Of a stretch of 64,000 bases of DNA, positions 477 to 30,270 are shown piece after piece. Source of the stretch: Onthophagus taurus (lineage: Eukaryota > Arthropoda > Insecta > Coleoptera > Scarabaeidae); assembly GCF_036711975.1 (NCBI RefSeq), contig NC_091971.1, positions 7,261,501 through 7,325,500 on the forward strand, given 5' to 3'. The notes beneath the pieces are model-generated. The model searched no databases and was not told the DNA's origin. It was given only the letters and a program-made list of their open reading frames with translations. Each line of letters starts with the position of its first letter. Within the stretch, counting starts at the first letter, position 1. A program made the position numbers and the translations under genes.

Positions 477-3400
477 TTAAAAACGTCCTCTCGAAGGTCC
501 TCCTCTAGGGGCGCCGCCTCGTGGTCCCGGCATACGGGGATTCCAATTGTTCTGTTTACCGCCAAACCCGCGATTACCCCTAAGGCCCCTAAATCCGCCC
601 CTTCCGCGGAAAGCACCATCCGGGGGACCATTCCACCCGGGATTCTCTTGATACATCCCAAACGGTGGCGGAACATTCGGACGAAAATTTCTATTAAAAT
701 TAACCGGCGGAGGGGGTGGCATCTCCTGGTAACCTCTCCCAAATTTTTGCCCATTCCTCCAACCCCGATTATCCTCATAATAACCATCATAATCATCCTC
801 TTTATTATAATCTTGATAATTATTATCATCCCGAAAGCCTTGATTACAATAATCATCATCTTGATTTCCACCTTGATTAAAATTAACCGATCTGTGTTGA
901 TTTTGTTGGTTTTGTTGATTTTGTTGATTTTGGCGATAATCGACATCTTGCTGACGCATATCAATATCTTTATTTTCCCAATTTGAACCGTTATTTATAT
1001 TATTATGACTTGTTTCGTTGCTTGTTTCATCATTATCATCGTCGTCGTCGTCATCTAAATACGCTTGATTGAGGTAATCATGCTCATCATCATGCGGCAT
1101 GACATCATGAAGTTCTTCTATATCACCAGAATCAATGTAACGTTGTAATGCTTCGGGGCCTTCCGCAAAAGCTGCTTCTAATTTAGAACCCGCTAAAACA
1201 AAAATAATTAAAATAATAATAATTTTATTTAGTTTTATTTAACTTACGTTCAACGGGAATTAATTTTCCATAAATTATAATGGCATTTGGTGCAATTTTT
1301 TGTAACGGAACGACGCCGGGTGTATTTTCAACGATTTGGCTGATAACCTCGGTCAAATTCGATTCTTCCTCGCCCGTTTCGTTCCATTGAGCTTGGAAGT
1401 TTCTTGGAATTGGTTTACTGTAAGGAACCTTTTTTACTTTCACTTTATCGTCTGCGTTATTTCCTAACGGATCTAAATCTAATCCGGGAATCGTTGCGTT
1501 ATCGTCGGGGAAAAGATTTACGTCGACTTTATCTTCTGGACCCATTCCTGGTATCACAGCCGGTTCATCAGCTAAAAAAATTAATACGTTTTCACGGATT
1601 ATTAATTGAACTAACACTAGAATTATCACTATAACTAGAATCTAGTTCTAGGTCTGATGTTAGTTCTAATGATAGTGTTAATTCTAACAATTAGAACTAA
1701 CACCAAAACTATTTATCACCTAATTAGACCTAGAACTAGAAGCATTCATGTCTTTTTAGACGCACAGCTAAACTGGAATGTTTGTAGTTCTAGATCTAGT
1801 TTTTTTAACGTTTTAAATTGAAGGGTGATTTAACATTATAAATATCCTTTTACCTATATCAACATCATCTAATCCAGCAATTCCAGCAGGTAAAGTGTTC
1901 AAATTATATTTATCTCTCATTAAATCGCCTGGTCGATTCCTTGTCCAAAATTTACTGGTATGATCATTCGAACCAGAACATAAAATGTGCCCAAGAGGAT
2001 GCCAAGCTAAAGTCCACACGATACTATCATGAGCTTGCTCGATAGCTCCTACTTCTTTGTCGGCCCTATCGAATTAAATAATATAAATGAATCGGATTTT
2101 TTATTTCTTTTAATTATTACCCAACGTGCCAAAACATGATAGATCCATCTGAGCCACCACTACAGAATAAGCCTTCATGATGCGGGTGCCAAGCAACGCT
2201 GGAGGCTTCTTTTTTATGTCCTCGAAACGTTTGGATTTCTTGGCTAAGGTTGCGGAGGTCGAAAAGTTTTAATAAGTGATCTCTAGAGGCGGTTATTAAC
2301 CAATTTCCGTTTTCGTTCCATTTTAAATCCATCACCGTTGATTTATGAGCGTGTCTAAAAAACAATACAAGTATTTTTTTTATTAATACGGTGATAAATC
2401 TGACCCAACCCAACCCAACATTAATATTAACAGAACAAATTTAGCGCCTCATTCGCAAGCAACCTCGTCGGAGTAAGGTGAAATACGAGATATATAAGAA
2501 ACGATTTCGCCTCAAATCGCCGAGGTCGCTTACGGGCGAGGTACTAGAATCTTCCAAACCTGACGATTTCGTGTTGATACTTAAATCTGGCGCCTCACTC
2601 GCAAGCGACCTCGACTGAGTGAGAGTAAATGTCTTCTTATAAGAGACTTTGTATCTTTACCAAGATATATAAGAAGCGATCTCGCCTCAAATCGCCGAGG
2701 TCGCTTGCGGACGAGGCGCTAGAATCTTCCAAAGCTGACGATTTTGTCTTGATGTATTAAATCCAGCGCCTCGCCCGCAAGCGACCTCGGCGATTTGAGA
2801 CGATATCGTTCCTTTCACATCTGTGTAAAGACATAAAGTCTCTTATAAGACGATATTTACCCTCAAACCGCCGAGGTCGCTTGCGGGCGAGGCGCTAGAA
2901 TCTTCCAAAGCTGACGATTTTATGTTGATGTATTAAATGTAGCGCCTCGCCCGCAAGCGACCTCGGCGATTTCAAGCGATATCGTTCCTTTAACATCTGT
3001 GTAAAGTCACAAAGTCTCCTAGAAAACGATATTTATCCCCAAACCGCCGAGGTCGCTTGCGGGCGAGGCGCTAGAATCTTCCAAAGCTGACGATTTTGTG
3101 TTGATGTATTAAATGCAGCGCCTCGCCCGCAAGCGACCTCGGCGATTTCAAGCAATATCGTTCCTTTAACATCTGTGAAAAGTCACAAAGTCTCTTAGAA
3201 GACGATATTTATCCCCAAACCGCCGAGGTCGCTTGCGGGCGAGGCGCTAGAATCTTCCAAAGCTGACGATTTTATGTTGATGTATTAAATGTAGCGCCTC
3301 GCCCGCAAGCGACTTCGGCGATTTCAAGCGATATCGTTCCTTTAACATCTGTGTAAAGTCACAAAGTCTCTTAGAAGACGATATTTATCCTCAAACCGCC

Positions 3401-6400
3401 GAGGTCGCTTGCGGGTGAGGCGCTAGAATCTTCCAAAACTGACGATTTTATGTTGATGTATTAAATGCAGCGCCTCGCCCGCAAGCGACCTCGGCGATTT
3501 CAAGCAATATCGTTCCTTTAACATCTGTGTAAAGTCACAAAGTCTCTTAGATGACGATATTTATTCTCAAATCGCCGAGGTCGCTTGCGGGCGAGGCGCT
3601 AGAATCTTCCAAAGCTGACGATTTTGTGTTGATGTTTAAATGCAGCACCTCGCCCGCAAGCGACCTCGGCGATTTCAAGCGATATCGTTCCTTTAACATC
3701 TGTGTAAAGTCACAAAGTCTCTTAGAAGACGATATTTATGGTCAAACCGCCGAGGTCGCTTGCGGGCGAGGCGTTAGGATCTTCCAAAGCTGACGATTTT
3801 GTGTTGATGTATTAAATGTAGCGCCTCGCCCGCAAGCGACCTCGGCGATATCGTTCCTTTAACATCTGTGTAAAGTCACAAAGTCTCTTAGAAGACGATA
3901 TTTATCCTCAAAGCGTCGAGGTCGCTTGCGGGCGAGGCGCTAGAATCTTCCAAAGCTGACGATTTTATGTTGATGTATTAAATGTAGCGCCTCGCCCGCA
4001 AGCGACCTCGGCGATATCGTTCCTTTAACATCTGTGTAAAGTCACAAAGTCTCTTAGAAGACGATATTTATCCTCAAAGCGTCGAGGTCGCTTGCGGGCG
4101 AGGCGCCAGAATCTTCCAAAGCTGACGATTTTATGTCGATGTATTAAATGTAGCGCCTCGCCCGCAAGCGACCTCGGCGATATCGTTCCTTTAACATCTG
4201 TGTAAAGTCACAAAGTCTCTTAGAAGACGATATTTATCCTCAAAGCGTCGAGGTCGCTTGCGGGCGAGGCGCTAGAATCTTCCAAAGCTGACGATTTTAT
4301 GTTGATGTATTAAATGTAGCGCCTCGCCCGCAAGCGACCTCGGCGATATCGTTCCTTTAACATCTGTGTAAAGTCACAAAGTCTCTTAGAAGACGATATT
4401 TATCCTCAAAGCGTCGAGGTCGCTTGCGGGCGAGGCGCTAGAATCTTCCAAAGCTGACGATTTTATGTTGATGTATTAAATGTAGCGCCTCGCCCGCAAG
4501 CGACCTCGGCGATATCGTTCCTTTAACATCTGTGTAGTCACAAAGTCTCTTAGAAGACGATATTTATCCTCAAACCGCCGAGGTCGCTTGCGGGCGAGGC
4601 GCTAAAATCTTCCAAAGCTGACGATTTTATGTTGATGTATTAAATGTAGCGCCTCGCCCGCAAGCGACCTCGGCGATATCGTTCCTTTAACATCTGTGTA
4701 AAGTTACAGTCTCTTAGAAGACGATATTTATCCTCAAAGCGTCGAGGTCGCTTGCGGGCGAGGCGCTAGAATCTTCCAAAGCTGACGATTTTATCTTGAT
4801 GTAGACAAAAGGGAGGTGGTAGAATCATTCAAAGCTGTTGATATATCAAATCCAATTAAACTTACAAAGTTGCTAAAGATTGTCCAGTTTTTGGATCCCA
4901 TAACTTAATCGGTTGTTGATTATCTTTACTTCCAGATATGACTAAGGCTTTCTGCGGATGCCAGTGTACGCATTTTACATCGGCACCATGACCTAATATA
5001 TATTATTAATTAATATTTCCAATATGAAATGAATAAAATATAATAATTTAACCCTCTAATACACAAATTAATTATAAATGATATGAATTGGAGGATTAAA
5101 TAGAAATAAAATTAAACTTACCTCGTAAAACTTTTTCTTCTGTATAACGAAAAAAATCCCATATTCGAAGTGTTCCATCGTCTGAACAGGTGACGAATTT
5201 ACTATCGGATGGGCTGAAGCTGTTTAGACAAAAAGATAAACAACAAATTTTCTATCAATCATTTTTATTTAAATACTCATCGCGATTATGGCACAATAAT
5301 AAAGAAATGTTGGGAACAAAAAAATTATTTTCGCATTTATTTTCCATAAATTATAGAAAAACATAATCAAATAAAACAACTTGGTTTTTATTTTCCTTTA
5401 TTTACATAGAAAAAATCCTCCTGTTTGTCTCACGTCGTTTGAAAATAAGGTAAAAATAAAAACAGTCTTCCAAATTTCCAACCAGACGATAAAATTACGT
5501 AAAAGTTACGTGGAATCGCCTAGAAAAAAATTTGGAACGACATTCCGTGTATTTCCTCTTTTTGCACGCAATTTATTGTTTCAATTAATAAAAAAATCAA
5601 CCTGTACATTGTACAAAACCAACTATTTTATTAATATTATTAATTATTACATTCTTAAAATGTCACAAATCTCCGGATTGAGAGAATAAATAAGTCGAAA
5701 TTATTTATTTACTTTGGATCGCGTCTTTATTATCAATTAAATAGTTCTAACCGAATCGAAAATGAATCAATCAATCTTCGCAAGCAAAATTTTTACGTAC
5801 ATTGTTCGCAAGAGGATTAGGAAGGTGCCATTTATTAAGTATACTATTAGATATACAGTATCGAGTACGTAGTGAAGTTGTAGTAGATACCTTATTCCAC
5901 GAAGAGCCTCTTTATGCGCCTGGAACATCTTCACGTTGTTCATGTTTGACTGCCAGTACTTCACGTAACCGGCATGGTCTCCAGTCACCATCCAACTATC
6001 GTTATGCGACCAAACCATCGTTCTCACCGGACTATCATGTGCCTATAGATAAAACATAAACAAAAATTAACTCAAATAAACAGTGGATCTAAATGTTATT
6101 AATAAACTTTAAGAGATTTCATCAACTTCAATGATAGATTTTAAATATTAAAAGATATGATACTAACTTGCAAAATTGTTTCAAAATTAAAAGTTAACCC
6201 ATTCCAAAGTGTAAACTCCCCAGAACTCGCCCCCGTGACTAATCGACGTCCTTCCGGCGTCCAAGCCATACAAAATATGGGACACCGCATCTTATTAGTT
6301 GCTGTTTTAACAAATCTAGTCGTCACACAATTGATTGGATTGTCTGGATAACTCGGTGGTGGCATCATGTCGGGGTAATACATCACATCTGGTTGGAGAG

Positions 6401-6803
6401 CGCGTCTATCTCGATAATCTCTTTGCCAAACTCTCGTCTATAATAAAAGAATTAAATAAATTAATTATTTAATAAATTATTTCAATCATTACTTGTAATT
6501 CTTTAATAATAGACGAATTATAATCGACGGTTTTTCTCATAACAGATTTTCTTAATCGTTTCCCATCGAAATCCTCCAAAGTCATGTTTCCCAACGGTCC
6601 TGGTAACGGTCTATTTGCGCTTAAAAACGGTCTAAATTGTGGTCTAGAGTATCCTAAATAAAAAAAAAAATATTTATTAATACACCAAAAGTAATCACTT
6701 ATAACCTCAATTGATATTTAAGTTTACCTTGGCCACCCATACCGGGTGGTGGAAGAGACATGTTAGGCATACCGTGGCCTTGCGGACTCGGCGCAAATTC
6801 CAT
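477..6803 (-). CDS. WDR33: WDR33, pre-mRNA 3'-end processing WD40 protein
   Basis: Ten exons on the minus strand: 6728-6803, 6493-6653, 6168-6437, 5891-6042, 5122-5219, 4866-4992, 2121-2354, 1854-2065, 1248-1571 and 477-1192. They join in frame to about 789 residues. WDR33 is a core CPSF subunit that helps recognise AAUAAA before cleavage and polyadenylation in the nucleus. The N-terminal block has the family signature [10 protein letters not shown]...RKTVDYN. It is followed by WD40 repeats containing [40 protein letters not shown] and [19 protein letters not shown]. The tail has [10 protein letters not shown], an acidic Asp run, and a Gly/Pro/Arg-rich (RGG-like) end. The vertebrate protein is much longer because of a collagen-like region that is missing here. 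The intron at 2355-4865 carries a satellite array. The start faces LAGE3 across roughly 0.3-0.65 kb. Confidence 0.95.
1590..1805. repeat. CTAG-rich palindromic repeat, copy 1
   Basis: This sits inside a WDR33 intron (1572-1853). The sequence is dominated by interspersed CTAG/AACTAG/TTAGTTCTA words. It contains the divergent palindromic centre of the family: CATTCATG, then AGACG and AGCTAAACTGGAATG. Other copies lie near 11340, 15400-15690, 19110, 39245 and 56030. Confidence 0.6.
2433..4815. repeat. Satellite array A: 14 units with inverted-repeat cores
   Basis: Fourteen tandem units fill a WDR33 intron. Each has a forward core (GAGGTCGCTTGCGGGCGAGG), a spacer of about 46 bases, and the same core inverted (CCTCGCCCGCAAGCGACCTC), so each could fold into a hairpin of about 28-bp arms. 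Forward cores start near 2518, 2693, 2869, 3045, 3221, 3397, 3573, 3748, 3914, 4080, 4246, 4412, 4576 and 4740. The period is 175-176 in the first half. It is 164-166 in the second half, where units lack about 10 bases beside the inverted core. The units are highly similar, so homogenisation is recent. A short open frame across it is only the repeat. Confidence 0.95.
5223..5888. other. WDR33 intron, nothing recognised
   Basis: AT-rich intron between WDR33 exons 4 and 5. A 102-codon plus-strand open frame (5381-5689) has no recognisable domain and low-complexity composition. I see no supported feature. Confidence 0.5.
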
Positions 6804-7449
6804 ACTTTAAATGTTTTATTAACCACTATTCTATATTTTTTTAGTAAAAACTTATAAACACTACCACTTTCATATTTACTACTGTCACCTTCAAACACAC
6901 GACAGCTTCTCTTTTTTTCTTGCTTGTTGCACGCACAGAAATGTAATTACGGCACTGATTGGTTTATTAGAAATTGTAATAAATAGATATTTAAGGTGAA
7001 ATATGTAATCTATTTGCGAATTTGATCCGAATTAATCTTATAAACGGTGTAAGTTTGTTGAGATTGGCGTGATGTAGTAAACTTCATTAAATTCAGTACG
7101 TTGAGTTTCTAATGCGCATGTGCGGATATAGATGGCTGTCATGTTGAAATTAAATTTTTGACTTCATTTTTAATTTTAATGAAATAATACTTTGATTTTA
7201 AATTTTTTCTTGTATAAAACATAATAATAATCATTTCTTTTAAAATTACTTTTTTATATTTCCGATTAATTCAATTAAAATTTTATAAATAAATAAATTT
7301 TATTTTTGTTGGTTGGTACTTATTTTGTGTTACAAATCTAACCTCAAAATATATTTATAGTAATAAATAAATAATTTGAGATGTACAAAACGTAATATTT
7401 CTTTAATTAATTAATAACAATAAATGTAAATCATAAATGTTTTTTTTAG
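6804..7449. promoter_or_regulatory. Divergent promoter region WDR33 / LAGE3
   Basis: About 0.65 kb separates the WDR33 start codon (minus) from the first secure LAGE3 exon (plus). It must contain the 5' UTRs of both genes and the small first LAGE3 exon. It is AT-rich, and I see no TATA box at a convincing place. Confidence 0.5.
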
Positions 7450-7727
7450 CGAAATTGTATTAGAACTACCTGAAAAGAATTACTTGGAAATTATACATCA
7501 AGTTTTAAGAGTCGATAAAGAACCAAAAGCTACAGTTTCGAAATGTTTTAATTTAGAAGAAAATAAATTAACGATGTAAAGTTTTTAATATGAACATCAA
7601 ATTTTTTTATTAATATTGATTTTTTAGAACATTTTCGAGTGTTTCAATAAAAAGTTTACGAATAGCTGTCAATGGGTTTTTCGAAAATCTCAATTTAATA
7701 ACAGAAACAATAAACAAATTTAATTAA
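7450..7727 (+). CDS. LAGE3: LAGE3/PCC1-like subunit of the KEOPS complex (5' exon unresolved)
   Basis: Two exons are secure: 7450-7575 and 7628-7727, ending at a TAA. They encode EIVLELPEKNYLEIIHQVLR followed by VDKEPKATV and, after the intron, SLRIAVNGFFENLNLITETI. This is the Pcc1/LAGE3 fold signature (LRVDKEP and LRxAVNxFxExL). Pcc1 dimerises the KEOPS complex, which makes the t6A modification at position 37 of ANN-decoding tRNAs. The first exon is missing. A possible one is ATG CGC AT at 7112-7119, which joins in phase to give M-R-I-E-I-V, but its donor (GTGCGG) is weak. The stop is separated by a single base from the PIGP start codon, so both are probably read from one mRNA. Confidence 0.82.
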
Positions 7728-7728
7728 G

Positions 7729-8196: not shown

Positions 8197-8239
8197 TAAA
8201 GGGGATTAGTTCTATAACATTTAATTTATTACTTTGTGA

Positions 8240-8690
8240 TCAAATAAATCAAAAATTGATAAATAAATGTTTATTGAATCAATGCGTAAACAAACAAATA
8301 CAAAACTGATTAAATTATGAATAGTTTCAAATCAAAAGTTCTGCCTTTTAAAGGCTTAGAAAATCAAATAAACTTAAATTTAACAAAATCAACATGTTCA
8401 ATCAACGCGATTCATGTGAAACTTACAAATACAACAATATTATTATTAATTAAATATTTATTTCTTATCAATAGGATAAAATTGATAAATAAATATTTAT
8501 TGAATCAAACAAATACGAAACTGACTAAATTATGAATAGTTTTACATCAAAATCAAAAATTCTTCCTTTTTAAAGGTTTAGAAAATCAAATAAACTTAAA
8601 TTTAACAAAATCAACATGTTCAATCAACACAATTCATGTGAAACTTACAAATACAATAATATTATTATAAATTAAATATTTAATTCCTAT
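8240..8690. repeat. Tandem duplication of about 215 bp between PIGP and ELP3
   Basis: Two adjacent, similar copies run roughly 8245-8465 and 8465-8690. They share segments such as AAATCAAATAAACTTAAATT and CAACATGTTCAATCAAC. The right copy includes the last few codons and stop of ELP3, so the duplicated unit came from the ELP3 3' end. Confidence 0.8.
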
Positions 8691-11600
8691 CAATACCATT
8701 AATTTCTTCTCGACGTTCAAACGGGGAAGGTTTAGCTCGTAATTCTGGATGCTTTTCCAATATCGCTGGCAACTAAAATCCCAAAAAAAAATTTATAAAA
8801 ACTTTAAATTATTAAAGTTTTTATATCAACTAACCTTTTCTCGAGCCCATTTTTCAAAGTATTCCTCATCATTAAGTATTTTTTCTTTTGGTTTGAAATC
8901 AGATAAATAAATTGGTTTAGATAATAACTTTGGGGGATCATCAATAGCATAAGAAAAAGCACTTTTATACTCCCCATCTTTCAAACTTTTAACCATATAA
9001 ACTCCTTCTAATTCGTAACCTAACTTCCTGTAATAATTCCTAGTTCCAACGCCGGAAATAACGGCGATTTTAGTAGCTCTATGTTCGTGTATGGCGATTC
9101 TCTCCGCTTGCTCCATTAAAGTAAAACCAAGACCTTTATGTTGGAACTTTCCCAAATCGCGTTCGCTTACAGAAACAACACTACCATAAACGTGTAACTC
9201 CCTAACAATTGACACGTTCCCTTTTAATTCCGGTCGGAAAACTCGATTACCACACCTTCTCAATCGACAAAAACCGATTAAAATATCTTGCTCGGGATCT
9301 TCGTAACTTAAAAAGCTTTCCCACCCTCCGTTAGCCGCATAATCACGACGAACAAATTCGATATGTTCCGGACGTTTCTTCTTGTGAATTTCGGTGATTC
9401 CAACCTCTCGGGTGCGAATATCGCGGCATTTCAGACCTAATTCTTCCATTCTAGCCAAAGCTAATTCCCTTAAATTTCCGTGTTCAACCCCCGAACTAAC
9501 CAAAGGCATCGGAATATCACGCTGAACTCTATATACTCTTGTATATGCAGGAATTATGGATAAAATTTGTGCGATTAAATCCACTAAAACGGAAGGAGGG
9601 TAACTTTTATAACGACCAGTTTTCCAAAGTTCATAAAGACCAGTTCCACGAATTACTAAAGTTGGGTATATTTTAAGACCATCTGGTCTAAATTCATGAC
9701 ATACAAAAAGATCCTAAAACAAATAATGTTATTATTGGGATTAGCCATTCGTCTCTTAAGGGTCCATTCTGGTTAGTTAAATAAAAAAAATCGAAAAATA
9801 TATTTTACGCTGGTTTTTTCTGCTCTCTCTAATATTTGTAAATGTAAAACATGTAATGGATAGGTTTTCAACTCAATATAAAATGTAAATGCGGAAACAC
9901 TTTTATTTATTGTTGTGAAAAGACTCTGTTGTCGACAATATATTCGTGTCTGCAAGTGGTCGCCAGGAAAATGAAAAAAAAATAAAACAGGTGGAAATGA
10001 AGAAAATGTATCAGGAGATGGAACATGGAGCAAACGTGGTTTTTCTTCCCCCTTTAGTGTGGTAACTGTGATTGGACGTTACACTAGTAAATTAAATGAA
10101 ACAGAATGATAGTCTTGCAAACCACACAGGAAGTGCTGGAGTTATGGAAGTTCAAGGCATGTTGGAAATATTTGCAAAAGCTGAAGAACTACACGGCGCG
10201 AAATATAAAAAGTATATTGGAAATGGCGTTACGAAAGCTCAATTGCAACAGGACGCAGAAGTAGAGAAAAAAGAATATTTAAACCATGTGCAAAGAAGGA
10301 TGGGTTCTAGACTTCGTAACGCAAAAAAAACACAAAAACATCAGAAAATTGACAGACAGATTGATAAATGAATTAACTATTTATTATGGACTCGGAATAA
10401 GAAAAAATGGTTATCAATGTATGGGCTACTTTTGAACATAAAATATCAACGCTATCCAAACGGATCAGATTCATGGTGTAAGTGGTAACAAGCTAAAGCC
10501 CTCTCGACTTCTAGGTACAGGAAGTAATTCGACCAATTTATAACGATTTGTCGTCGCATGATTTGTTGACTTGGTGAATAATGAGAGCTTCAATAGAATT
10601 ATTGGCAATTTGTACCTAAACATGTTTTTTGCGGCTACAATATCCAAATAGCCGCATTTTTAGCCACCTGTATTTTTAACGAGGGTTTCAAACCTATTTT
10701 AAAAATTATGGAAACTATGGGCATCACTATCAGTCCATATACAGACATATTTGCCACCAAGCGTCGCGCAAAGCGCATAAAAGATGCAGAACGACTAACA
10801 ACATAATATCAATCTGTGGAGCAAAGAATGGCTCGGTGTAACAAGAAATTGAATATATTACGCAATTTTAAAGAAACAGAAAAGAATAGCCGATTAATTG
10901 TAAGCATTCACTTAAAATTTAAATTAACGAAAACATAACACAAAACTTTAAACGCATTTTCCTAACAAACATATATGTTGGCTTAGCGGAAATAATAACA
11001 CAATTTTAAATACAGGCGAAAGATTTTAAGGAATGATTCTTCAGCAAAAAGTAAGGGGTGTATAATTTTTTGTTCAAAACCCCTTCTCCTCTAAGTTATT
11101 GCCCTCTAAAGTTAAGGGACAAAATATGCAACTTTTTTATCTCTTGACATTGTACAACTAACAAATTGTTAGTTTGATCACAAAAAATAAAATAATGCTG
11201 AGATCAATTTGAAATCTCTGAATTAATTCACTTGAGCCTGTATATTATTTTATTTTTTTGTGATGCAAGAAAATGTTAAGAGACATCATAAACTTTGCCT
11301 AAAATTTGATTTAACAAACCAGAATGGATCCTTAAGATGGCTAAACCTCAATGTTTCTAGTTTTAGTGTTAATTCTAGATTTAGTTCAATAAAAGATACT
11401 AATAGAATTAATACTAGACCTAGGTGATGATGATTAATTACAACATACTTTAAATTGTCTCAGATCTCTTTCATAATCAACATTTGGTAAATTTGGCATC
11501 ATATGAGCCACAATTTTAAAACCACAATCTTTAGCTAATTCAAATGTATCGCAAACTGCTTTAACAGTATGACCACGATTTGTATCTCGAGCAACATCTT

Positions 11601-12969: not shown

Positions 12970-15900
12970 ATGAATGAAGAGGTAGAGTTAAAAGTTCAAG
13001 AAGATCGGCAGATGTGGCCCCCGATGGATAATGTGCCGATATCGAATATTGTCCCAACACACACAAATATTGCCATATCACCAGCACCCCAAGGAGCCCC
13101 GATAAATCCAAACAATTTCGTTGAGTATGAATTACCTTTTGAATATGTCCAACAAGGTTGGAAAAAATTTTGGTCTAAACGGGAAAATCGACCGTACTTT
13201 TGGAATAAATTAACCGGGGAAAGTTTATGGGAAATGCCCCCTTTAAATAAACCCCAATTTGATCCAATTACAGATCCTTTAGGGATTTGTCCACCGGTTG
13301 GTGCACATCCTGTTGCGATGCAAAGCCCTATTCCTGTTGCTAAACGACGACCTTCCGAAGAATTAGTAGGACCACAAGCAAAAAAATTTGTGTTAGCCGG
13401 ACCGTGGGATTTAGATGTACAGACTAATGTTGTGATAATTGAGAGACCTCCTTGTAATTATATGCATTCACATCCCGAAGTTGAAGCTTACAGGTGCAGT
13501 TTACTTTCAAAGTTGCGACAGTGTTATCAGGAACTATGTCATTCGAGGCAATCTATTGATGCACCAAAAGAATCTTTTAATAGGTGGTTAATGGAAAGAA
13601 AAGTATTGGATACTGGTAATTAATTAATTTTCATTTTACACATTAGGTAAATAAATCATTATTATCAATTTAGGTTGTGATCCTTTATTGCCAAGTAATT
13701 GTTATCCAGAGATATCAATGTCAATGTACAAAGAGATAATGAACGACATCCCTATTAAATTAGTAAGACCGAAATTTACTGGAGACGCGCGAAAACAACT
13801 ATCAAGATATGCAGAAGCAGCTAAATCAATCATGGAATCTCGAAATGCAGAAGCAGAAAGTAGGAAAGTGGTAAAATGGAATGTTGATGAAACGTTTCAA
13901 TGGTTGAGGCGGACAGTTGGTGCTACATATGATGATTTTCAAGACAGGTTGGCACATTTAAAACAACAATGTCAACCACATCTAACAGAAACGGTAAAAT
14001 TTTTAATATTTTATAATAAAATGTAATTTATCATTAATTTTCTTGTAGGTAAAGGTTTCAGTTGAAGGAATTTGTTTGAAAATTTATAATTTATCAGCTG
14101 AGTATGCAAGAAAAGTGCGAGAAAAATCAAATATTATTTTAAAGGAACATGGATTAGAATTGCCCCCAGTCTTGCCAAATAATAGCACAAGGAAAGTTTG
14201 GTGTTATCCCATTCAATTTCAAATTGGATGTACCAGGTTACCTGTAATTGAGTATTTACCAGACAGAGATCAAGCCATGTTAAGATTTCAAGGGGATACA
14301 TTGGTTATTAATGCAACTCACCTACAAAAAATGGTAATATACAGTGCTGTGCAAAATAATAGGTGTGACCTAAAAACAGTCTTTAAATGTATTTTAGTTG
14401 TAAAATATATGAGTAAAAAGTTAATAAGTAAAATTAGAACAAGTATAAGTTTGTTTCTCAAAACAAATATTATTTAATATTTGAAAACAAAAGAACACTT
14501 TAACGCCTGTGCAGAATAATAGGTGTATACATTAAATTAATAAAAATAATTTGGTTTTACTGAAAAATAAAAGAAAAACGGTATAATACAACATTTAAAA
14601 TTAATATTTTGTTTGTTATCCGTTTATTATTACTCTTTTTACATCTCCACATAGATGCTTGATTGGATTAAGGTCAGGAGATTGAGCTGACCATGGCAAC
14701 ATATCGATTTTCTTTTCAATAAACCAAGTCTTTGCTGCCCTGGAAGTGTGTTTGGGGTCGTTGTCTTGCTGAAACTTGCACAGCAGAGTCATATTGTTAT
14801 CAATGTAGGGTGTTGATGTAACCATATTGATTTAAAATGCCTGTATCCAAAAAATTCGGCCAACTCCATACCAGGAAAAGCACCCCCAAATCGCCCATCT
14901 CCCACCATGTTTTATTGTTTTGCTGATGTACCTAGAATTAAATTCTTTTTCTGGAGGACGCTTTACGTCTATCTGATGCGAATAATTTTATTTTCCTTTT
15001 GTTGCTCCACAATATGTTTTTTGACGGCTACTTTTCCATGGTTGCGTGCAAATTGTAACCTTCTCTATACGTTCTTTTTTGACAATAATGAAACTCTTCG
15101 TGAGCTCCTATCAGGCAAATTCTTCTCTAAAAGTCATCTTCTAATAGTCGATGTGTGGATATAATATATAATTTTTGACGTATCAAGAAGGTCTTACTTG
15201 GAGGAGTAAAATGAGAAGTCACGTTTATACACTGTATTTTTTTTAAGTTATTTTTTGGCGGGAGTTTTAAAACCAGAGAGGATTTTAAGTAAGCTCTAGT
15301 TGCGAATTTAATTACTTATTTGTTTAAACATAATAAAAACCAGGGCGTACCTACTTACTTTACTAAAGCAATATACAATAATCTAGCGCTGAATAACAAA
15401 TAAAACTGGACTAATACTAGCACTAGAATTAGCACTAGACATAGAATTAGAAACATTCCGTTTAGCTGTACCTCTCTTAAGACGGCCGGTAGGTGATAGG
15501 TAGCGCTAGTTAAAGTTTCTAGTTCTCGTTCTAGTGTTAGTTCTAGTTTTACACTCGTACTATCTCTAGAATTAACACAAGAACTAGAATCATTCGGGTT
15601 TAGCCGCACGTCTCTCAAGACGGCTAAACCCGAATGTTTCTAGTTCTCGGTCTAGTGTTAGTTCTAATGACAGTGGTAGGTAGCGTTAGTTAGTATAAGA
15701 TATTACTATGTTGTATATTTTTGTTGAACTATCTGAATATCGTCTTGTGCTAGGTGTTAGTTCTACTTTTATACTAGCACTATCACTAGAACTAGCACAA
15801 GACGATATTCACGATACGTTTTGCCCTATTTACGCAGTTTTATAATATTTTCTTTTCGCTACAATGTTTTGCTCTTCCCATTATATCGCTAAATGGTACA

Positions 15901-22744: not shown

Positions 22745-22785
22745 AAAGGCACGTGGAGGCCACCAACCGTGGATTTTCGTTTGGC
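22745..22785. promoter_or_regulatory. Third JH-response-like module (kJHRE-type core)
   Basis: GGCACGTGGAGGCCACCAAC then CGTGGATTTT: CACGTG at 22750-22755 followed by GAGGCC. Read on the minus strand (the Kr-h1 strand) it is GGCCTCCACGTG. It matches the two modules at 22.05-22.15 kb over GGAGGC-A--AACCGTGGATTTT. It lies 1.3 kb upstream of the Kr-h1 start codon. Confidence 0.72.
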
Positions 22786-23007
22786 CCGTTTGTCCCCGGG
22801 ATTGTGTTTATCTATTTTCGCACAGCTTTTTCGTAATCTACAAAAAATATTGTTATTAATTGATTACTTATTATGGAGGTGTTATCGAATCATATCTCCA
22901 AATTTGTGCATTTAGAGTAAATTATGAGTGTAAATAATAAAAAAATATTGATTAAAATTATTTGTTTTTAACAAATAAACCCAAATAAATTTTTTTTTGA
23001 CTTTTCA

Positions 23008-24150
23008 AAAATGAAATGTCAATGTGACATAACCTGTTCTCAAAACATGACATAACTAATTTCCCTAGTAATGTTACCAACTGTAATTAGTACAAAAAAT
23101 TATAAGTATATGTGTTTAAGTCCTTAATAAAATTGTGATTTTTTTACTTTACAATAAAACTTCCAAGTTTTTACCAAACTAAAAACTTAAATAAGTATAA
23201 TTAAATTGCCACTTTCATTCTGGATGACAATAAGGGCCAATCACAGCATTTCACGTATTACAGGAAGTATACTCTTCTTCTCATCTTCTTCACAATGATA
23301 AGGCTAGAAGGTCACAATTTGAAAACTTGTCCTTATTACTTCCCAGTCATTGCGTTTAAATTGCGTATTGTTAGGCTAGTGCGTTGTTTCTATTTACTAT
23401 ACTAAAAGGCAATCAACCAAAACAAAAGCCCCGCGTATCGATTCTCTATGCATAGATACAAAAATATTGCGATATTCTACATATCTATCAAGCAACTATT
23501 GAACCAAAGCATTTGAAATGTAGCAATGATTAAAAAATAAAATAAAAGCGGTAGTATGCTTAATGACTCTTTAAAAATGAAATGTCAATGTGACATAATC
23601 TGTTTTCAAAACATGACATAACTAATTTCCCTGGTAATGTTACCAACTGTAATTAGTACAAAAAATTCTAAGTATATCTATTTAAGTCTTTAATAAAATT
23701 GTGATTTTTTACTTTAAAATAAAACTTCCAAGCTTTTACCAAAGTTTGTTCGAATCTTGTAACTTAAATAAGTACGATTAAATTGCCACCTTCATTCTGG
23801 ATGACAATAAGGGCCAATTAGAGCACTTCACGTAATGCAGCAAGTATGCTCCATGACTCCTTAAAAATGAAATGTCAATGTGACATGTGACATAACCTGT
23901 TTTCAAAATATGACATAACAAATTTCTCTGGTAATGCTACCAACTGTAATTTGTACAAAAAATACTAAGTTTATGTGTTTAAGTCCTTAATAAAATTGTG
24001 ATTTTTTACTTTACTATAAAACTTTCAAGCTTTTACCAAAGTTTGCTTGAATCTTTTAATTTAAATAAGTATAATTAAATTGCCACGTTCATTCTGGATG
24101 ACAATGAGGGCTAAAATCAGATGACATAACAAATTTTCCTGATAATGTAA
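23008..24150. repeat. Three to four degenerate direct repeats
   Basis: Blocks AAAATGAAATGTCAATGTGA (23008, 23573, 23863) and TTCATTCTGGATGACAATAA (near 23214, 23791, and a variant near 24090) recur in the same order with about 200 bases between. The last two units are about 290 bases apart. The first pair is separated by an extra 280 bases of unrelated sequence (about 23280-23560). It resembles a decayed tandem array; no coding capacity. Confidence 0.7.
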
Positions 24151-24609
24151 CCAACTGTAATTTGTATAAAAATACTGTGTTAAGTAAAATACTGTGTAAA
24201 GTATTGTGTTACGATCTTGTTGTGTGGGTTGTCCAAATCCAGCATAATTCCTGCCCAAAAGCCACTTTTTGCAAGTCGAGATGACAGAAAACGAATGAAC
24301 CTCGTTTCTCATCTTTTGTGAGGTGCAGTAAGCAAATGTCGTACAGCTAGATTGCAAGCTGTTTTCCTTAACTTTCGTCGAATACAGGAAACGCAAAAAA
24401 TTGTTAGAAGGTTACTTTAAAACGCAGTAACAAATACGTTACCTTACGCTCAAAGCACAAGGAAAGATCTCAAAGTAGAGTCTCTTTTTAAAAATGGTGG
24501 ATGAAATGACTGAAATTCAACACCAAAGAGCAATAAAATAAAATAATTCTTTATTAAAATTTGAAGCTTAATCCTAAAAAGTTTGAGAAACAGATTCCCC
24601 TTTACATCT

Positions 24610-24650
24610 CTTTACACGTGTAAATAGAAAATCCACGGTGAGGAGCCGCT
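24610..24650. promoter_or_regulatory. CACGTG next to a CCGTGGATTTT half-module
   Basis: TTTACACGTGTAAA (CACGTG 24615-24620) followed within 10 bases by GAAAATCCACGGTGAGGAG. Its complement, CACCGTGGATTTTC, matches the right half of the modules at 22.05 and 22.75 kb in 12 of 13 positions. It is a possible partial copy of the same element. Confidence 0.5.
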
Positions 24651-24769
24651 GTGCGTCCAAGTTTTTTGGAGGCCAATGTACCTCATACTAACCGATCCCC
24701 ACCACCACACACCACAGGGTTCAAACTAAAAAGAGAGAATAAAAAAAAAGAAAAACAATCCTCTATGGC

Positions 24770-25030
24770 GACAACGGATTGTTTTTTTTGATCGCCAAAA
24801 TCAATTTGCAACGAAAACAACTCGAAATCGATGTGATTATGTGCAAATATCGGGCGGTAAGCGTTTTGTTGGCGGCGATTTTGGCCGATTTTCGCTTGGT
24901 TAGAAAGAGAAAGTCGACGCCGCCGCGCCGAACTCTCCCGAATAGACTCGGCGGCAACGTTCGACTGTCACGGCCACCTTGACCAATCTCAACGTTAAGT
25001 TGTTTTAGCTGTCCCAGGCAACCGGATCAA
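24770..25030. other. GC-richer segment, candidate Kr-h1 first exon or promoter
   Basis: This 260-base stretch is clearly richer in CpG (CGACGCCGCCGCGCCG near 24914) than the surrounding AT-rich DNA. Both strands stay open for about 65 codons but the translations resemble no protein I know. A 5' non-coding exon or promoter of Kr-h1 is the simplest reading, unproven. Confidence 0.35.
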
Positions 25031-25549
25031 CTTTGAAAATTGAGCAATACTATTGCGTAGAAATATTGAGTACTATGTTCGTACTCGGTAAGGTATACTA
25101 TACCTTTAATTTATTTATTAAAAAAAAATTCAATTTAATATCTTTGCGCGCGCATCTTTTGGACGGGCGAGGCATTTTTTGTACAGCAATTTTGGTAGTG
25201 CCAAAGGACTTTAGGTCGATGAACCCACACGTGGTGTGGACGCCCCATATTATAAACCCCTACTTATTTCAGTTCCCTTTTACCCTAATGTTTTATAAAA
25301 TCCCCTCTTAAATTTTAGAAAACTATTAATATATCGACATTTCTTTTTTTAAATTACTAGGTTATTACTAGCAATGTTAATTATAAGTCCTGGAATGGAA
25401 TGACGTTCTTTTTTAAGTAACTTCATGCGATAAAGCCGAGGCGCCACGATATGATATTAATCACTAAGTCGAGGCTTAATAATTAACGTTATACGAACAT
25501 GAAATTGGTCATATGTAACCTTGAATTAATTAGTTAAAAAGATCTACAA

Positions 25550-25835
25550 CTATAATTGATAGAAGGGCTGCCTCTAGATGTTTTTATCAGGGAGGTGGCT
25601 GTGATGGCGTTGTTTCGATTGCGATCAGTGGATAATAAGCGGGTTGTAAAAATGGGAATAGTCTGGAGTGAGGCTGTTACTAAACAATCCCTTGAAGCTT
25701 GCACAGACTACATCACACCTACTTTCCTAAAAAGGCCACAATTTGGCATTGAGATGATACCCCAGACTAACTTTAGCACTGATGGATCAAAGAAGGATAT
25801 GATCATCGACTCCAAAAAAATTAGCAGAAACGTTG
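25550..25835 (+). mobile_element. LINE (Jockey/R1-type) ORF2 fragment
   Basis: The frame from 25556 reads IEGLPLDVFIREVAVMALFR (25557-25616), then IPQTNFSTDGSKKD (25756-25797). This matches the GLPPLDxxIxxEA segment between reverse transcriptase and RNase H, and the TDGSK motif of RNase H, in Jockey/R1-type LINEs. It is a short, isolated, inactive remnant. Confidence 0.65.
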
Positions 25836-25929
25836 TAATCTGCATTGATAACTGCAGACAGGTTATGCTAGTAATGCTTAGTAAGTATGTAGTTCGATAC
25901 TTACTAAGCATTAAGTATCATCGTTAGTG

Positions 25930-26420
25930 AAGTCCTGTTACTTTCAATTGCTTTCTTTTCTAAAAAATTATCACCTAGCCAAACTCGCTATATATTCTGC
26001 AATAAAATTTTCTAAACATTTCTTCTGGGTAATAAGTTTACTGTTTATACCGATTACAAACCTTTGGTCAATTCGTTTACTTCACAATCTGAAAAGACAC
26101 CACGACAGACTCGATATCTATAGAATCAATATTGACTACCTTGATTTTTCTTATCCTGATTTAAAAGCAATTGGAGATGCTCAATCAAAAGATCTCTTAA
26201 TACACACATTGTTGCCAGAGGAAGCAGAAACAGGTGGAACAACGATCTCCCTATGATTTTATTGGGACTCAGATCCTCTCTCAAAGAGGATCTGGGATGT
26301 TGTTCCGCTGAACTGGTTTATGGTCAGCCTCTGCGTTTACCTGGAGAATTTTTTGTTAATAAAAATCGACTATTAAAAATGTTGTCATTTCATGCAACAA
26401 CAAAGAAATGACTGTTGGTT
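25930..26420 (+). mobile_element. Fossil Ty3/Gypsy-type LTR retrotransposon fragment
   Basis: Pieces resembling the RNase H region (LAIYSAIKFSKHFFWV) and, further on, the integrase C-terminal region are recognisable over about 0.5 kb. No LTRs were identified. It is broken, with several disruptions, and looks old. It lies directly after the LINE fragment in the Kr-h1 upstream block. Confidence 0.55.
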
Positions 26421-28214
26421 GATGGCTTACAATCACCATTTTTGCTAAAGATCCTTAATGAATTTGTTATCGATGTTTTAAAATACTTTCATTATTGGCT
26501 AACAAGCCGCTTCTAAATTTTGCTTTCAAATCCCTAAATATTTTGTTACATTATTAGACTTGTTTTTGTAAAAAACTTATTTTCGATTTAAAGCAACAAA
26601 TAGCGATCGAGATTAATTTATAATATTTAAAAATGAATGCGAATTGTTTTGAACAAATTTTGAATCATTTTAACTCCACGTGTAATGTTGCTATATTAAA
26701 ATGGTATACTACATTCGATAATATTAATAAACTTAAGCACGCGTGGTGATAATAATAGGTACACTCCGTAAACTGTTAAATCGCCACGAACTGTCGTAAT
26801 CGGTTTATGTTGTTGATATTCAAACCCATAACAAAAACCACGACCGCATTATCTTATCTCTCTTTAGAACGTGTGTCGCTTCATTCAACTCAAGAACAAC
26901 AAAACATTCCAAATTTAACTTTAGTAAAACGCAATATTATTCTACAAGTTATTAAATAATCGCACGTGCGATGGTCAGTGGTCGAGTAAATTGCACGATT
27001 ACATTTTTATTTTACGTAATTCCTTCTTTTTATGCATTAAAGGTCAACCTGTTTACAATTGACTTCGATTATGTTATTAATATTCCCTCTTTATTTTTAT
27101 CAAACAGTTTGATTTTGCGACTTCGATTTCGCTGCGTAAATTTTGTTAAACGGCACGTGGCTTTATAGTCTCTGGAGGCCAGGTAAACAGAATAATAACC
27201 TAACCGTGTAAGTACTCCGAGCGTGACAATAGATCATTAAATAAATTCTAGTGTGTAGTTGACTTTGAGATTTGTAATTTTTTATTTTAATTATTTGCAA
27301 CAAAGTTATTTGCTTAATTCTATATATAGTAATAACCTAAAATATTAAATTACACATGATTCTTTATTACAATTCCTAGAAAGCGTGGAAATATTTACAT
27401 TCGCCGTGCAAAACATTTCTCTACGACCTCGCCCAAAAAATTAATCAGCTCATGTATGTGTATTTTGAATATACACATGTTTGGCGATTATCGCACGATT
27501 TCTGCGCGTTTATCTTCGATGCTGCGCCAATTCTGAGAGGAAATCCTTTCGGTCGCGGTATTCGAAAATAGAGCGTTACTTTCCATTTAATTGAGAGGCG
27601 GGCGCCCGTGCAAGTTTTTCACATCACCAAACTCTACAACAACAACAACACCACGAGCCTGATGGCCACACGAGGAAACCTTGAATCCCATTTTCGAACG
27701 TCGCGTGTGCATGCACTCAACGGTTAAGCACATTTTGTGGGTTCTAATAAAGTTTGAGGCGATAAACTTGGAGACGTGACCTAATTTGTTTATAATAGTT
27801 TGAACCATTATCTACACTTACTTATTATTGTTATTGAGTCTATTTTAAATCAGAAAATATTTCTTTTTCAAACAACCAAGAATGTCAGATACTAAACATT
27901 ACAAGTCTTCATTTTCTTGTTGAAAATAGCAGTTAGCCAGACAATTACAACCTTTTAACACTCCAAAATAAACTTAAAACCTTTAAGAGTACCAATAAAT
28001 TTCGAATCTGTTCGAAAAGTTTACAAACCGTTCCCAAAAACTTCAATGCTATTGAGAATACATGAGAATGTGGAAACTTAAAGGTGCATAATGCGTTTTA
28101 CAATAAAACAATAGATATAAATGCAAGTTTACAATAACAAAACAATTGTGCACGAGGAAACCTCGATTGTCACCCGAAAATTTACATTGAATGAAATTTC
28201 GTGTGTGACAAATA

Positions 28215-28340
28215 CGCGATAAGGATTATCGCCGAAAATAGATTAATTCGATGCGCGTTATTTCGTTATCGGTAATTGGCAAAATATAGAATTATCGTTT
28301 CCGAAAAAGTTTCTTATCTTTGGCAAATAAGCGTGATAAG
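28215..28340. promoter_or_regulatory. Cluster of six GATA-type sites
   Basis: GATAA or its complement TTATC occurs at about 28218, 28226, 28266, 28292, 28314 and 28335, in both orientations, within 125 bases. More lie near 27490-27515 and 28560. Such density is typical of an enhancer bound by GATA factors, but AT-rich DNA gives these words often, so this is only a candidate. Confidence 0.4.
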
Positions 28341-28884
28341 TAATTTTTGAGAGCTTTTATTTTTTTCGCAAATTTTAACGAAATCGAAAAAAAAATTAAA
28401 ATCAAATACTTCAAATTTTGTTGCGTCTAACATAAATGTATATCTTATTATTTTTTTTTGATTCGGTTTTCAGAAGAAATATGAAACCTAAAATAATCAA
28501 TACAGGTTTTTATTTAAAAAATGTTTAATACCTAATATCCACAGTAATTTTCCAGACACGTTATCGCGTTATGTTAGTGTAAAACAGCGTGTAAAATGAA
28601 AATTATTTGTTAGTTGTAAATTCTCATGCAAATAGTTCCCAAAGCGAGAGGAGAGTGTGTCAGAAAAATTACGACTTTTCCGCACATGCAATGCGTGCTG
28701 GAGAACCTTGACACAAACCTTGCCACCAATACAAACGGAACCAAATAAACGAGCGTGTGCGTGCCATGCACATTCGTTGCGTAATTTGTTGTTGCAAAAT
28801 TATTATTTGTTATATTATTTATTCAACTATGTTTCATGAAATTATTAACATATATATTTATATATAGGTATTATTAATCTCTGT

Positions 28885-29400
28885 GTACAGGGTGTCTCAA
28901 ATTCGTCGTCCGCATAACTATCTCCGAAACTAAAAGAACTAGAAAAAAAGTAACTTAAATGTCATGATCTCGTTTTTCAAGAAACTGCTAATGCCAAAAA
29001 CTTCGAATAGCTATCGTCTTTTATTTAAGCACTAAATTTTTTACGAAGAATTTAGTGGAGTAGGTAAAATTTTCTTCTATTGTTTTATTTTCGAGATTTT
29101 ACAGGTAACTGTATTTTTTTAAACCCAACCCAATCCCAATTATAGAGTGAAGAAACCCAAATTATAGCGTGAAGAAACTCCAATTTTAACGTGAAGGTAT
29201 GTTGGGACAGGCCAGTTTTCTTTTGAAGCCCCAATTATAGCGTGAAGGAATGTCGGTTTTCTTTTGAACCCCAATTATAGCGTGAAGGAATGTTAGGGCA
29301 GGTCAGTTTTGTTTTCGGCTGTTAATCATCTAGGTAAAAAATATTAAGTAAGGTTAGTTTTGTTTACGGCTGCAATTTTATTTTATTTTATTTAAGTGTT
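28885..29400. repeat. Possible transposon end and a short minisatellite
   Basis: ACAGGGTGTCTCAAATTCGT (28887) resembles the outer end of many insect mariner/Tc1-type elements, but no partner end or coding region was found. At about 29130-29310 a unit containing CCCAATTATAGCGTGAAG(G)AATGT recurs four to five times with imperfect spacing. Confidence 0.45.
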
Positions 29401-29419
29401 GCAAGTTTGATTCACCTTC

Positions 29420-30270
29420 TAAGACATAAAATGAACGATACCATCTATTATCGCCGAGGTCGCTTGCGGGCGAGGCGCTACAACCGACATTTTATACCAG
29501 CTCCACGTTGATATAGTTACATATCCAGCGCCTCGCCCGCAAGCGATCTCGGCGAAGTGAGAATAAATTAATGTGTTTTGCGTTTGGTTTACTTTCCAAG
29601 ACATAAAATGAACGATACCATCTACTATCGCCGAGGTCGCTTGCGGGCGAGGCGCTACAACCGATATTTTATACCAGGTCCACGTTCATATAGTTACATA
29701 TCCAGCGCCTCGCTCGCAAGCGACCTCGGCGAAGTGAGAATAAATTAATATGTTATGCGTTTGGTTTACTTTCCAAGACATCAAATGAACGATACCATCT
29801 ATTATCGCCGAGGTCGCTTGCGGGCGAGGCGCTACAACAGATATTTTATACCAGCTTCACGTTGATATAATTACATATCCAGCGCCTCGCCCGCAAGCGA
29901 CCTCGGCAAAGTGAGAATAAATTAATATGTTATGCGATTGGTTTACTTTCCAAGACATAGAATGAACGATACCATCTATTATCGCCGAGGTCGCTTACGG
30001 GCGAGGCTCTACAACAGATATTTTATACCAGTTTCTTTCCTCGGTAAAATGAGGATAAGCGATTTCTCATTCAAATGTTGTGCGTTTGGTTTACTTTCTA
30101 AAAAATTAAATGAACGATATCATCTAATGTTGCCAAAGTTGCTTGCGGGCGAGGCGCTACAACCCATAGTTTATACCAATTTTTCAATTTTTTGTTGATA
30201 TAGTTACATATCCAGCGCCTCGCCCGCAAGCGACCTCGGCGAAGTGAGAATAAATTAATGTGTTATTGGT
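29420..30270. repeat. Satellite array B: five units sharing the inverted core of array A
   Basis: Forward cores start at about 29452, 29629, 29806, 29983 and (diverged) 30132. The first four are exactly 177 bases apart. Each unit has the same core as array A (GAGGTCGCTTGCGGGCGAGG), a spacer of about 48 bases, then the inverted core. The spacer (TTTTATACCAGCTCCACG) and the inter-unit sequence (ACATAAAATGAACGATACCA) are unrelated to those of array A. Two arrays thus share core, geometry and period but not the rest. Confidence 0.93.

What the first reader, a model, noticed from the sequence alone, without database searches (positions are those of the whole stretch)
2433..30270. Two satellite arrays 25 kb apart share an inverted core and a 176/177-bp period but not the rest of the unit
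Array A (2.43-4.81 kb, 14 units) and array B (29.42-30.27 kb, 5 units) both carry GAGGTCGCTTGCGGGCGAGG and its inverse about 46-48 bases apart. The period is 176 in A (first half) and 177 in B. Spacer and inter-unit sequences look unrelated. Ordinary amplification from one source would keep whole units alike, so either the core and spacing are selected or cores spread as a mobile hairpin into different backgrounds. The period is near one nucleosome.
Basis: partly seen in the sequence, partly recalled or inferred. Interest (0 to 1): 0.84.

Follow-up and report, generated by a model that had tools for sequence, protein, structure and literature searches.

The report
Shuffling satellite DNA with conserved hinge
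Two repeat arrays near ordinary genes belong to one scattered repeat family in which a short, strictly kept DNA motif joins interchangeable pieces that swap and flip, so the motif looks like what lets these repeats spread, although nothing shows yet what recognises it.

Summary
Both arrays are real, but the claim that everything outside the core is unrelated is only half right. Each unit is core > IN (about 52 bp) > inverted core > OUT (about 84 bp). OUT of array A matches the reverse complement of OUT of array B (z 7.1, 0 of 2000 shuffles); IN of A and of B do not align significantly once core-adjacent bases are stripped. The core is genome-wide: 6290 copies with at most 2 mismatches in 290.8 Mb, reversed control 0. 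In the window and 40 loci, IN and OUT behave as cassettes: one OUT type occurs with several IN types, and OUT is flipped relative to IN in some arrays, array A included. New mutations enter the core, but few become fixed between arrays (core 41 singletons, 4 fixed; spacer 194 and 153; p 1.4e-6). Hairpin arms do not covary and the period varies, which weakens the hairpin and nucleosome ideas. Best reading: a dispersed satellite family whose core is needed for propagation and is where cassettes recombine. Closest known: Box 1 satellites of Meloidogyne.

The parts
2440..4803 (.). Array A: 14 + cores and 14 - cores; IN of 51-52 bp; OUT of 84 bp, then 74 and 72 bp (first OUT 55 bp); lies in an intron of a WDR33-like gene (gene on the - strand)
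   Evidence: peptides from ORFs at 2117-2440 and 5767-6042 match WDR33 chains of the PDB best
2870..2892 (+). Example of the core: the 20-mer (2873-2892) with the three OUT-side bases GCC before it
   Evidence: per-position conservation
2893..2944 (+). IN cassette, type A (between + core and - core)
2965..3048 (+). OUT cassette, type A (between - core and the next + core); homologous to the reverse complement of OUT type B
2613..2696 (-). OUT cassette of array A inverted relative to the OUT cassettes from 2789 on, while the neighbouring IN keeps its orientation
   Evidence: identities
2467..2521 (-). First, shortened OUT cassette of array A; best match in inverted orientation (z 6 inverted against 4 forward), too weak to be counted as called
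29405..30270 (.). Array B: 5 + cores and 4 - cores (no - core found between the + cores at 29987 and 30135), IN type B of 55 bp, OUT type B of 82 bp, somewhere between a zinc-finger ORF and an LSM-domain ORF
29653..29707 (+). IN cassette, type B
29728..29809 (+). OUT cassette, type B (its reverse complement aligns with OUT type A)

Best explanation
A and B are two subfamilies of one dispersed, modular satellite family in a 290.8 Mb eukaryotic genome. The unit is two copies of a 20-23 bp core in inverted orientation, joining two non-coding cassettes, IN and OUT. SHOWN: the core is at thousands of places; IN and OUT types recur in different combinations and relative orientations; core variants arise in arrays but seldom become the fixed state of an array, while spacer variants often do. 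INFERRED: (1) cores are the points where cassettes are exchanged and flipped, by homologous exchange or template switching between core copies; (2) the core is kept because only units with an intact core found or expand new arrays, most simply because a DNA-binding protein or a replication/recombination process recognises it; isolated copies then decay. Local arrays would grow by unequal exchange or rolling circles, and pieces re-insert with ends at no fixed phase. The family looks selfish; no host function is shown.
For: Core count 6290 at up to 2 mismatches, 1463 exact, 8031 at up to 3; reversed controls 0, 0 and 4. An IN 20-mer for comparison: 35 exact, 360 at up to 2, reversed controls 0 and 1. 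Cassettes: 251 segments in the window and 40 loci, 217 called (105 IN, 112 OUT); IN type A with OUT type B in L048, L057 and L059; IN types A (2) and B (4) in one array over type B OUT in L057; two INs strictly alternate over type B OUT in L050. Flips: among 15 loci with only type A pairs, 10 have one phase, 3 the other (L032, L045, L062) and 2 both (L027, L053); 3 of the 10 rest on a single pair; array A of the window has both (23 pairs and 2). L053 OUT at 349 against 525: 86.9% as reverse complement, 71.4% forward. Fixation test, arrays with at least 4 units: core 41 singletons and 4 fixed, middle 194 and 153, Fisher p 1.4e-6, ratio 0.12 (bootstrap over loci 0-0.32). A direct-core family of 86-88 bp (L026, L030, L034, L041) shows no other similarity to IN or OUT at z 3.5 or more.
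Against: No protein, small RNA or chromatin data. The fixation test uses units whose cores were recognised with at most 5 mismatches, at loci chosen by core or whole-unit similarity, which favours intact cores; columns and loci are not independent. Genome-wide conversion confined to the core would give a similar pattern. In loci chosen by an exact core (L025-L052) the core is less protected (0.121-0.149 against 0.265-0.412; core at least as diverged as the middle in 9 of 109 pairs). The edge of constraint is clear on the IN side but not on the OUT side: the first 3 OUT bases hardly vary, and in type A OUT the first 10 on one side do not vary among 9 loci. That IN type B forward corresponds to IN type A forward is not established, so only phase calls within type A are free of assumption. 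Exchange beyond the core edge rests on 2-3 diagnostic positions in one array, L057, whose OUTs after type A INs also differ elsewhere. Cores of 20-23 bp are short for homologous recombination.
Confidence: 0.57

Rival explanations
1. Neutral, core-limited concerted evolution: spacers have diverged beyond the reach of conversion, so only the core, shared by the subfamilies, is still homogenised between loci; no site function is needed.
For: The core is the only sequence I found shared between the inverted-core and direct-core families, and mutations in it seldom fix. On the OUT side conservation runs on for 3 to 10 bases in some classes, as conversion tracts might.
Against: On the IN side, variation starts within the first bases beyond the core in several positions, and the 8 bp beside the core taken together fix variants like the middle (47 singletons, 34 fixed). 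The two arms of one unit, the nearest partners, are not homogenised: 1 shared against 221 unshared mutations in IN hairpins, 8 against 205 in OUT hairpins.
Confidence: 0.28
2. The core is the terminal inverted repeat of a miniature (MITE-like) transposon: a common transposase mobilises [core-IN-core] or [core-OUT-core] elements with unrelated interiors.
For: Conserved ends with varied interiors in both orientations is how MITE families sharing one transposase look (recalled); several INs occur with one OUT type. L036 holds one core-IN-core pair whose flanks I could not assign clearly.
Against: The stretches on contig C1 begin and end at assorted phases of the unit, and I saw no evident target-site duplication by eye in the 11 stretches printed. 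86-92 bp arrays with all cores in one orientation exist. Alternation of two INs at one point of OUT (L050) would need repeated insertion at one base. No carrier element was seen in flanks shared among 21 sources; the shared flanks that I looked into next to arrays (L026, L028/L029, L036, L042) are other repeats that also occur away from arrays or, in L029, inside a cassette.
Confidence: 0.12
3. The transcribed arrays make small RNAs (hpRNA-siRNA or satellite piRNA) and the core is kept as the small-RNA sequence.
For: Single hairpins fold into near-perfect stems of about 28 bp or more (z -9.6 to -11.3, 4 of 4 folded); array A lies in an intron.
Against: Arms do not covary, so the stem is not what is maintained. 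No small-RNA data. No Rfam family reached its gathering score in array A (5 weak hits; array B was not searched).
Confidence: 0.07
4. The period near one nucleosome is selected and the core positions nucleosomes.
For: Median interval of inverted-core units is 176 bp (quartiles 175-178, n 208).
Against: The range is 118-214 bp within the 60-230 bp that the script allowed, with arrays at 174 (L059), 181-182 (L063), 187 (L064) and 199-214 (L050); direct-core arrays have 86-92 bp; array A itself falls to 164-166 bp.
Confidence: 0.05

Closest known systems
Box 1 (CENP-B box-like) satellites of Meloidogyne chitwoodi and M. fallax (PMC3694981; outline with abstract and found passages seen)
   Same: A short conserved motif in otherwise divergent satellites (32-64% identity) at the junctions where monomers replace each other; cut-and-paste or illegitimate recombination proposed.
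   Different: There the motif is 17 bp and resembles the CENP-B box; the passages that I saw describe no inverted pairs. Here the core is 20-23 bp, stands in inverted pairs, joins two cassettes per unit that also flip, is scattered among genes, and lacks the CENP-B box pattern.
BIV160/Cg170 and related bivalve satellites, some carried by pearl or Helentron elements (PMC5139131, found passages; PMC7492417, search listing only)
   Same: Divergent monomers share two conserved motifs; short dispersed arrays.
   Different: No carrier element was detected here; that study found no statistical support for junctions at the conserved motifs of BIV160/Cg170.
Tribolium satellites with inverted subunits and macro-dyad symmetry (PMC13081366, found passages)
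   Same: Inverted parts within monomers and conserved inversion sites.
   Different: Those are long subunits (about 300 and 470 bp) or kilobase subarrays in putative (peri)centromeres; here cores of 20-23 bp flank cassettes of about 50-90 bp, in the window near genes.
Satellites arising from MITEs or foldback elements (miDNA4 and Xstir of Xenopus, as described in PMC12628747, found passages; Tetris of Drosophila virilis, PMC4079207, search listing only)
   Same: Inverted repeats tied to tandem arrays.
   Different: No defined element ends or target-site duplications were seen here.
Aedes satellite piRNA locus tapiR1 (function recalled; search listing only)
   Same: Recalled: a short conserved sequence within a diverging satellite.
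   Different: No small-RNA evidence here.

Membership tests
Satellite DNA (dispersed tandem repeats) | Head-to-tail non-coding units at many loci | tested here: met
   521 matches to the A unit; 374 to the B unit
Satellite DNA (dispersed tandem repeats) | Higher similarity within an array than between arrays | tested here: met
   TRF matches 93-94% in A and B; between-locus distance in the middle of cassettes 0.237-0.412
Motif-driven modular satellites (Meloidogyne Box 1 kind) | Short motif conserved between divergent monomers | tested here: met
Motif-driven modular satellites (Meloidogyne Box 1 kind) | Switches between divergent segments located at the motif | tested here: met
   Type changes between IN and OUT in L048, L050, L057, L059; in L057 type A-like sequence seems to run about 8-11 bp beyond the core, on 2-3 diagnostic positions. 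Breakpoints elsewhere in the unit were not scanned for
CENP-B box satellites | NTTCGNNNNANNCGGGN in the repeat | tested here: not met
   No match with up to 1 mismatch in arrays A or B; 6 matches in the window, 6.35 expected; other loci not searched
MITE / foldback transposon | Defined termini with target-site duplication at solitary copies | tested here: inconclusive
   Assorted end phases, no evident duplication by eye among 11 stretches printed; L036 unresolved; no empty sites from relatives available
MITE / foldback transposon | Related autonomous element with transposase | not tested
   No search for a transposase flanked by the core was made
Helitron/Helentron-borne tandem repeats | Common flanking element around arrays | tested here: not met
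   All-against-all comparison of the window and 20 C1 loci; the shared stretches beside arrays that I examined are other repeats. Only these 21 sources, cut at E 1e-10, were compared
hpRNA / satellite small-RNA locus | Small RNAs from the stem | not testable with these tools
   No RNA data; arms do not covary

The most novel reading that the evidence does not exclude
The 20-23 bp core is the only heritable part of a non-coding selfish element: a site recognised by a host-encoded or transposon-derived protein that promotes amplification, excision and inversion of whatever DNA lies between two cores. Cores in direct orientation would give 86-92 bp arrays and cores in inverted orientation the flipping 175-bp units, so that new satellite families arise by capturing new cassettes between cores.
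Probability: 0.22. Interest if true: 0.82.

Novelty: new variant of a known kind. Interest (0 to 1): 0.55.

Why it matters
Whether short conserved motifs drive the turnover of otherwise unrelated satellites is an open question with few well-resolved cases. Here thousands of cores, cassettes that swap and flip, and a comparison of recent with fixed changes make it answerable in one genome: new core variants appear at 63% of the spacer rate but differences between arrays at only 13%, so a low mutation rate alone does not explain the conserved core. If a core-binding protein exists, the core gives a ready probe for it.

Tried and rejected
Whole units as simple diverged copies: rejected for IN, accepted for OUT in reverse orientation. 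Nucleosome-length selection: the period varies. Stem conservation or arm-to-arm conversion: no covariation. CENP-B box: absent from arrays A and B. Known structured RNA: no Rfam family at gathering score in array A, five weak hits of E 0.0012-0.21 that I take as chance hairpin matches (array B not searched). Viral origin: no exact match to the extended 27-mer in viral contigs. Host taxon: a TNAGG telomere-like pattern gave one TTAGG stretch only (two overlapping hits); the taxon is not established, and the insect-like look of the genes is recalled. Literature: the core 20-mer occurs in 0 papers of the held library. I found no description of cassettes flipping at short inverted satellite cores in the searches, which cover open-licence PMC papers only; for most hits only the listing was seen. 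A core of 28 bp, which I first assumed, was given up.
Full report
WHAT IS THERE. TRF finds array A at 2510-4803 (period 176) and array B at 29405-30031 (period 177). The core 20-mer with up to 3 mismatches occurs 36 times in the window; 100 shuffles gave none. Each unit reads core(+), IN, core(-), OUT. Array B lies between a C2H2 zinc-finger ORF and an LSM-domain ORF.

ARE A AND B RELATED BEYOND THE CORE? Yes, in part. OUT of A aligned forward to OUT of B gives z 1.9; aligned to its reverse complement, z 7.1 with 0 of 2000 shuffles as good. Class consensuses give z 6.6 in reverse and -0.1 forward. For IN, forward z is 3.3 (10 of 2000 shuffles as good) and reverse z 2.3 (50 of 2000) with the ends included, but the pair does not reach z 3.5 once 5 bp are stripped at each end. 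So OUT is a shared, inverted module, while IN is either replaced or diverged beyond recognition.

GENOME-WIDE. The genome (290.8 Mb, 33 contigs, unnamed) holds 1463 exact cores, 6290 with at most 2 mismatches and 8031 with at most 3; the pattern read backwards gives 0, 0 and 4. For comparison, an IN 20-mer close to the type A consensus (one position is split between T and C, and I used C) gives 35 exact and 360 with at most 2, backwards 0 and 1; this is not like for like, since the core stands twice in a unit and in more families. The A unit has 521 matches and the B unit 374 (lower bounds), on nine contigs each in the parts of the lists that were shown. I read 20 loci of 10 kb from contig C1, which are 20 of the 23 clusters that I count in the C1 part of the listing, and 20 loci of 0.8-1.3 kb: 8 of the 14 C2 clusters of that listing, the richer ones, and 12 places from the lists.

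CASSETTES. In the window and these 40 loci I found 251 IN or OUT segments; 217 (105 IN, 112 OUT) could be assigned to type A or B and to an orientation. Of 207 adjacent IN/OUT pairs, 44 were left out as unassigned. Type A IN occurs with type B OUT in L048, L057 and L059. In L057 four type B INs and two type A INs stand in one array over type B OUT, although the OUTs that follow the two kinds differ in detail; in L050 INs of 55-65 bp and of 80 bp alternate over type B OUT; L063 has a 50-bp IN. These last INs are not wholly unrelated: the L063 IN matches the shorter L050 IN in reverse (z 4.9), and the two L050 INs match weakly in reverse (z 3.7). Orientation also varies: among 15 loci with only type A pairs, 10 show one phase, 3 the other and 2 both; three of the ten rest on one pair each; array A of the window shows both. 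The clearest cases are L053, where every second OUT in the stretch read is inverted (86.9% identity as reverse complement, 71.4% forward), and the window, where OUT 2613-2696 is inverted against its neighbour (78.6% and 65.5%) while IN is not (82.7% forward, 57.7% reverse). Phases for pairs with a type B IN rest on an unproven equivalence of IN orientations, so I do not lean on them.

OTHER FAMILIES WITH THE SAME CORE. L026, L030, L034 and L041 (4 of the 20 C1 loci) hold arrays with cores in one orientation and a period of 86-88 bp; their spacers resemble each other (z 4.9-17.2) but none reached z 3.5 against IN or OUT. L051 has a 92-bp direct array. The core is thus shared by at least two families with no other similarity that I could detect.

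CONSTRAINT ON THE CORE. Among the 12 loci found by whole-unit similarity plus the window, the core differs by 0.028-0.055 and the middle of the cassettes by 0.237-0.399; the core was as diverged as the middle in 0 of 93 within-class locus pairs (36+21+15+21). In L025-L052, found by an exact core and many of them short and decayed, the core differs by 0.121-0.149 and the middle by 0.265-0.412, with 9 of 109 pairs the other way (3 of 55, 6 of 45, 0 of 3, 0 of 6). So it looks as if dead copies lose the core. Recent changes were then compared with fixed ones in arrays of at least 4 units. Singletons within arrays appear in the core at 0.0142 per base against 0.0225 in the middle (ratio 0.63), but differences between array consensuses at 0.030 against 0.233 (ratio 0.13). 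Counting each core once, and as fixed a variant in at least 80% of an array's units: core 41 singletons and 4 fixed, middle 194 and 153, Fisher p 1.4e-6, relative fixation 0.12 (bootstrap over loci 0-0.32). The 8 bp beside the core, 47 and 34, behave like the middle as a whole, but position by position the picture is mixed: on the OUT side the first three bases hardly vary in either type, and ten in a row do not vary on one side of type A OUT; on the IN side several of the first bases vary. I therefore take the core as the 20-mer plus GCC on its OUT side, 20-23 bp. Bias to weigh: units were recognised by cores with at most 5 mismatches, and the loci were chosen by core or whole-unit similarity.

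NOT THE HAIRPIN, NOT THE PERIOD. Single hairpins fold into strong stems (z -9.6 to -11.3, 4 of 4), as any such inverted pair must. But mutations in one arm are not matched in the other: 1 shared against 221 unshared in 128 IN pairs (null mean 4.2), 8 against 205 in 123 OUT pairs (null mean 4.5). Each core is kept on its own, as a site. The interval of inverted-core units has a median of 176 bp (quartiles 175-178) but runs from 118 to 214 bp (n 208, within the 60-230 bp that the script allowed).

MECHANISM. Shown: conserved core, cassette combinations, flips. Inferred: exchange happens at cores. In L057 the left side of the type A IN shows type B OUT up to the core, and its right side carries about 8-11 bp of type A-like OUT before type B OUT resumes. 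This rests on two or three diagnostic positions in one array; if right, it fits homologous exchange or template switching better than exact site-specific cutting. Inferred: only units with an intact core seed or expand arrays, through a binding protein or a replication/recombination step. The main rival, conversion limited to the core, is not excluded; the lack of arm-to-arm homogenisation and the edge on the IN side speak against it, the softer edge on the OUT side does not.

CARRIER ELEMENT. Flanks of the window and 20 C1 loci were compared all against all. The shared stretches beside arrays that I looked into belong to other repeats: that of L026 also occurs in L038 and at window 11004-11264 away from arrays, and that of L028 matches the insertion inside an IN cassette of L029. 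No common carrier was seen.

WHAT IS KNOWN. The nearest case is Meloidogyne, where a 17-bp CENP-B box-like Box 1 is conserved among divergent satellites and marks switches between monomers (PMC3694981; outline with abstract and found passages). Bivalve BIV160/Cg170 satellites share conserved motifs, without support for junctions at them (PMC5139131, found passages). Tribolium satellites show inverted subunits and conserved inversion sites on a larger scale (PMC13081366, found passages). Satellites from MITEs are reviewed in PMC12628747 (found passages), and circular satellite DNA in Tenebrio is reported in PMC13192020 (found passages). This case adds paired inverted cores, flipping of one cassette against the other, and a test of fixation. 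I call it a new variant of a known kind.

Noticed in passing
L026:4235-5538, L030:4316-5715, L034:2733-3613, L041:4337-5031: A second satellite family, 86-88 bp, carries the same core in one orientation; its spacers match each other but not IN or OUT at z 3.5. Its period is half of the main unit.
   Followed up: partly
L030:5885-7143: After a run of + cores the 87-bp array turns round and continues with - cores, an inversion of a whole subarray.
   Followed up: no
L051:1-1200: Direct-core array with an exact 92-bp period (12 of 12 intervals counted), another spacer class.
   Followed up: no
L029:4834-6280 and L028:1804-2047: An inverted-repeat insertion appears to interrupt an IN cassette between its two cores in L029 (read by eye, with a possible TATA duplication); parts of it also lie beside the array of L028.
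   Followed up: partly
Core position 15, window and L025-L064: G to C at core position 15 in 48 of 387 cores with at most 4 mismatches, the commonest transversion, suggesting a core subtype (for example in L040).
   Followed up: no
window 15370-15731 and 39049-39345; L042:5746-5924, L044:286-1557, L026:1-758: A different repeat of about 120 bp, matching itself in both orientations, recurs in many of the fetched loci and twice in the window.
   Followed up: no
window 14619-14831 (-) and 63117-63446 (-): Broken remnants that look like Tc1-type transposases (the first matches DDE_3 below its cut-off, E 0.0005; the second by eye).
   Followed up: partly
window 8291-8695, 23553-24111, 34933-35070: Other tandem duplications without the core (periods 222, 297 and 41 bp).
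   Followed up: no
G000:C3:12202483-12202517: Six perfect TNAGG repeats in a row were found at this one place only (TTAGG), so exact telomere-type arrays of that form seem scarce in this assembly.
   Followed up: no
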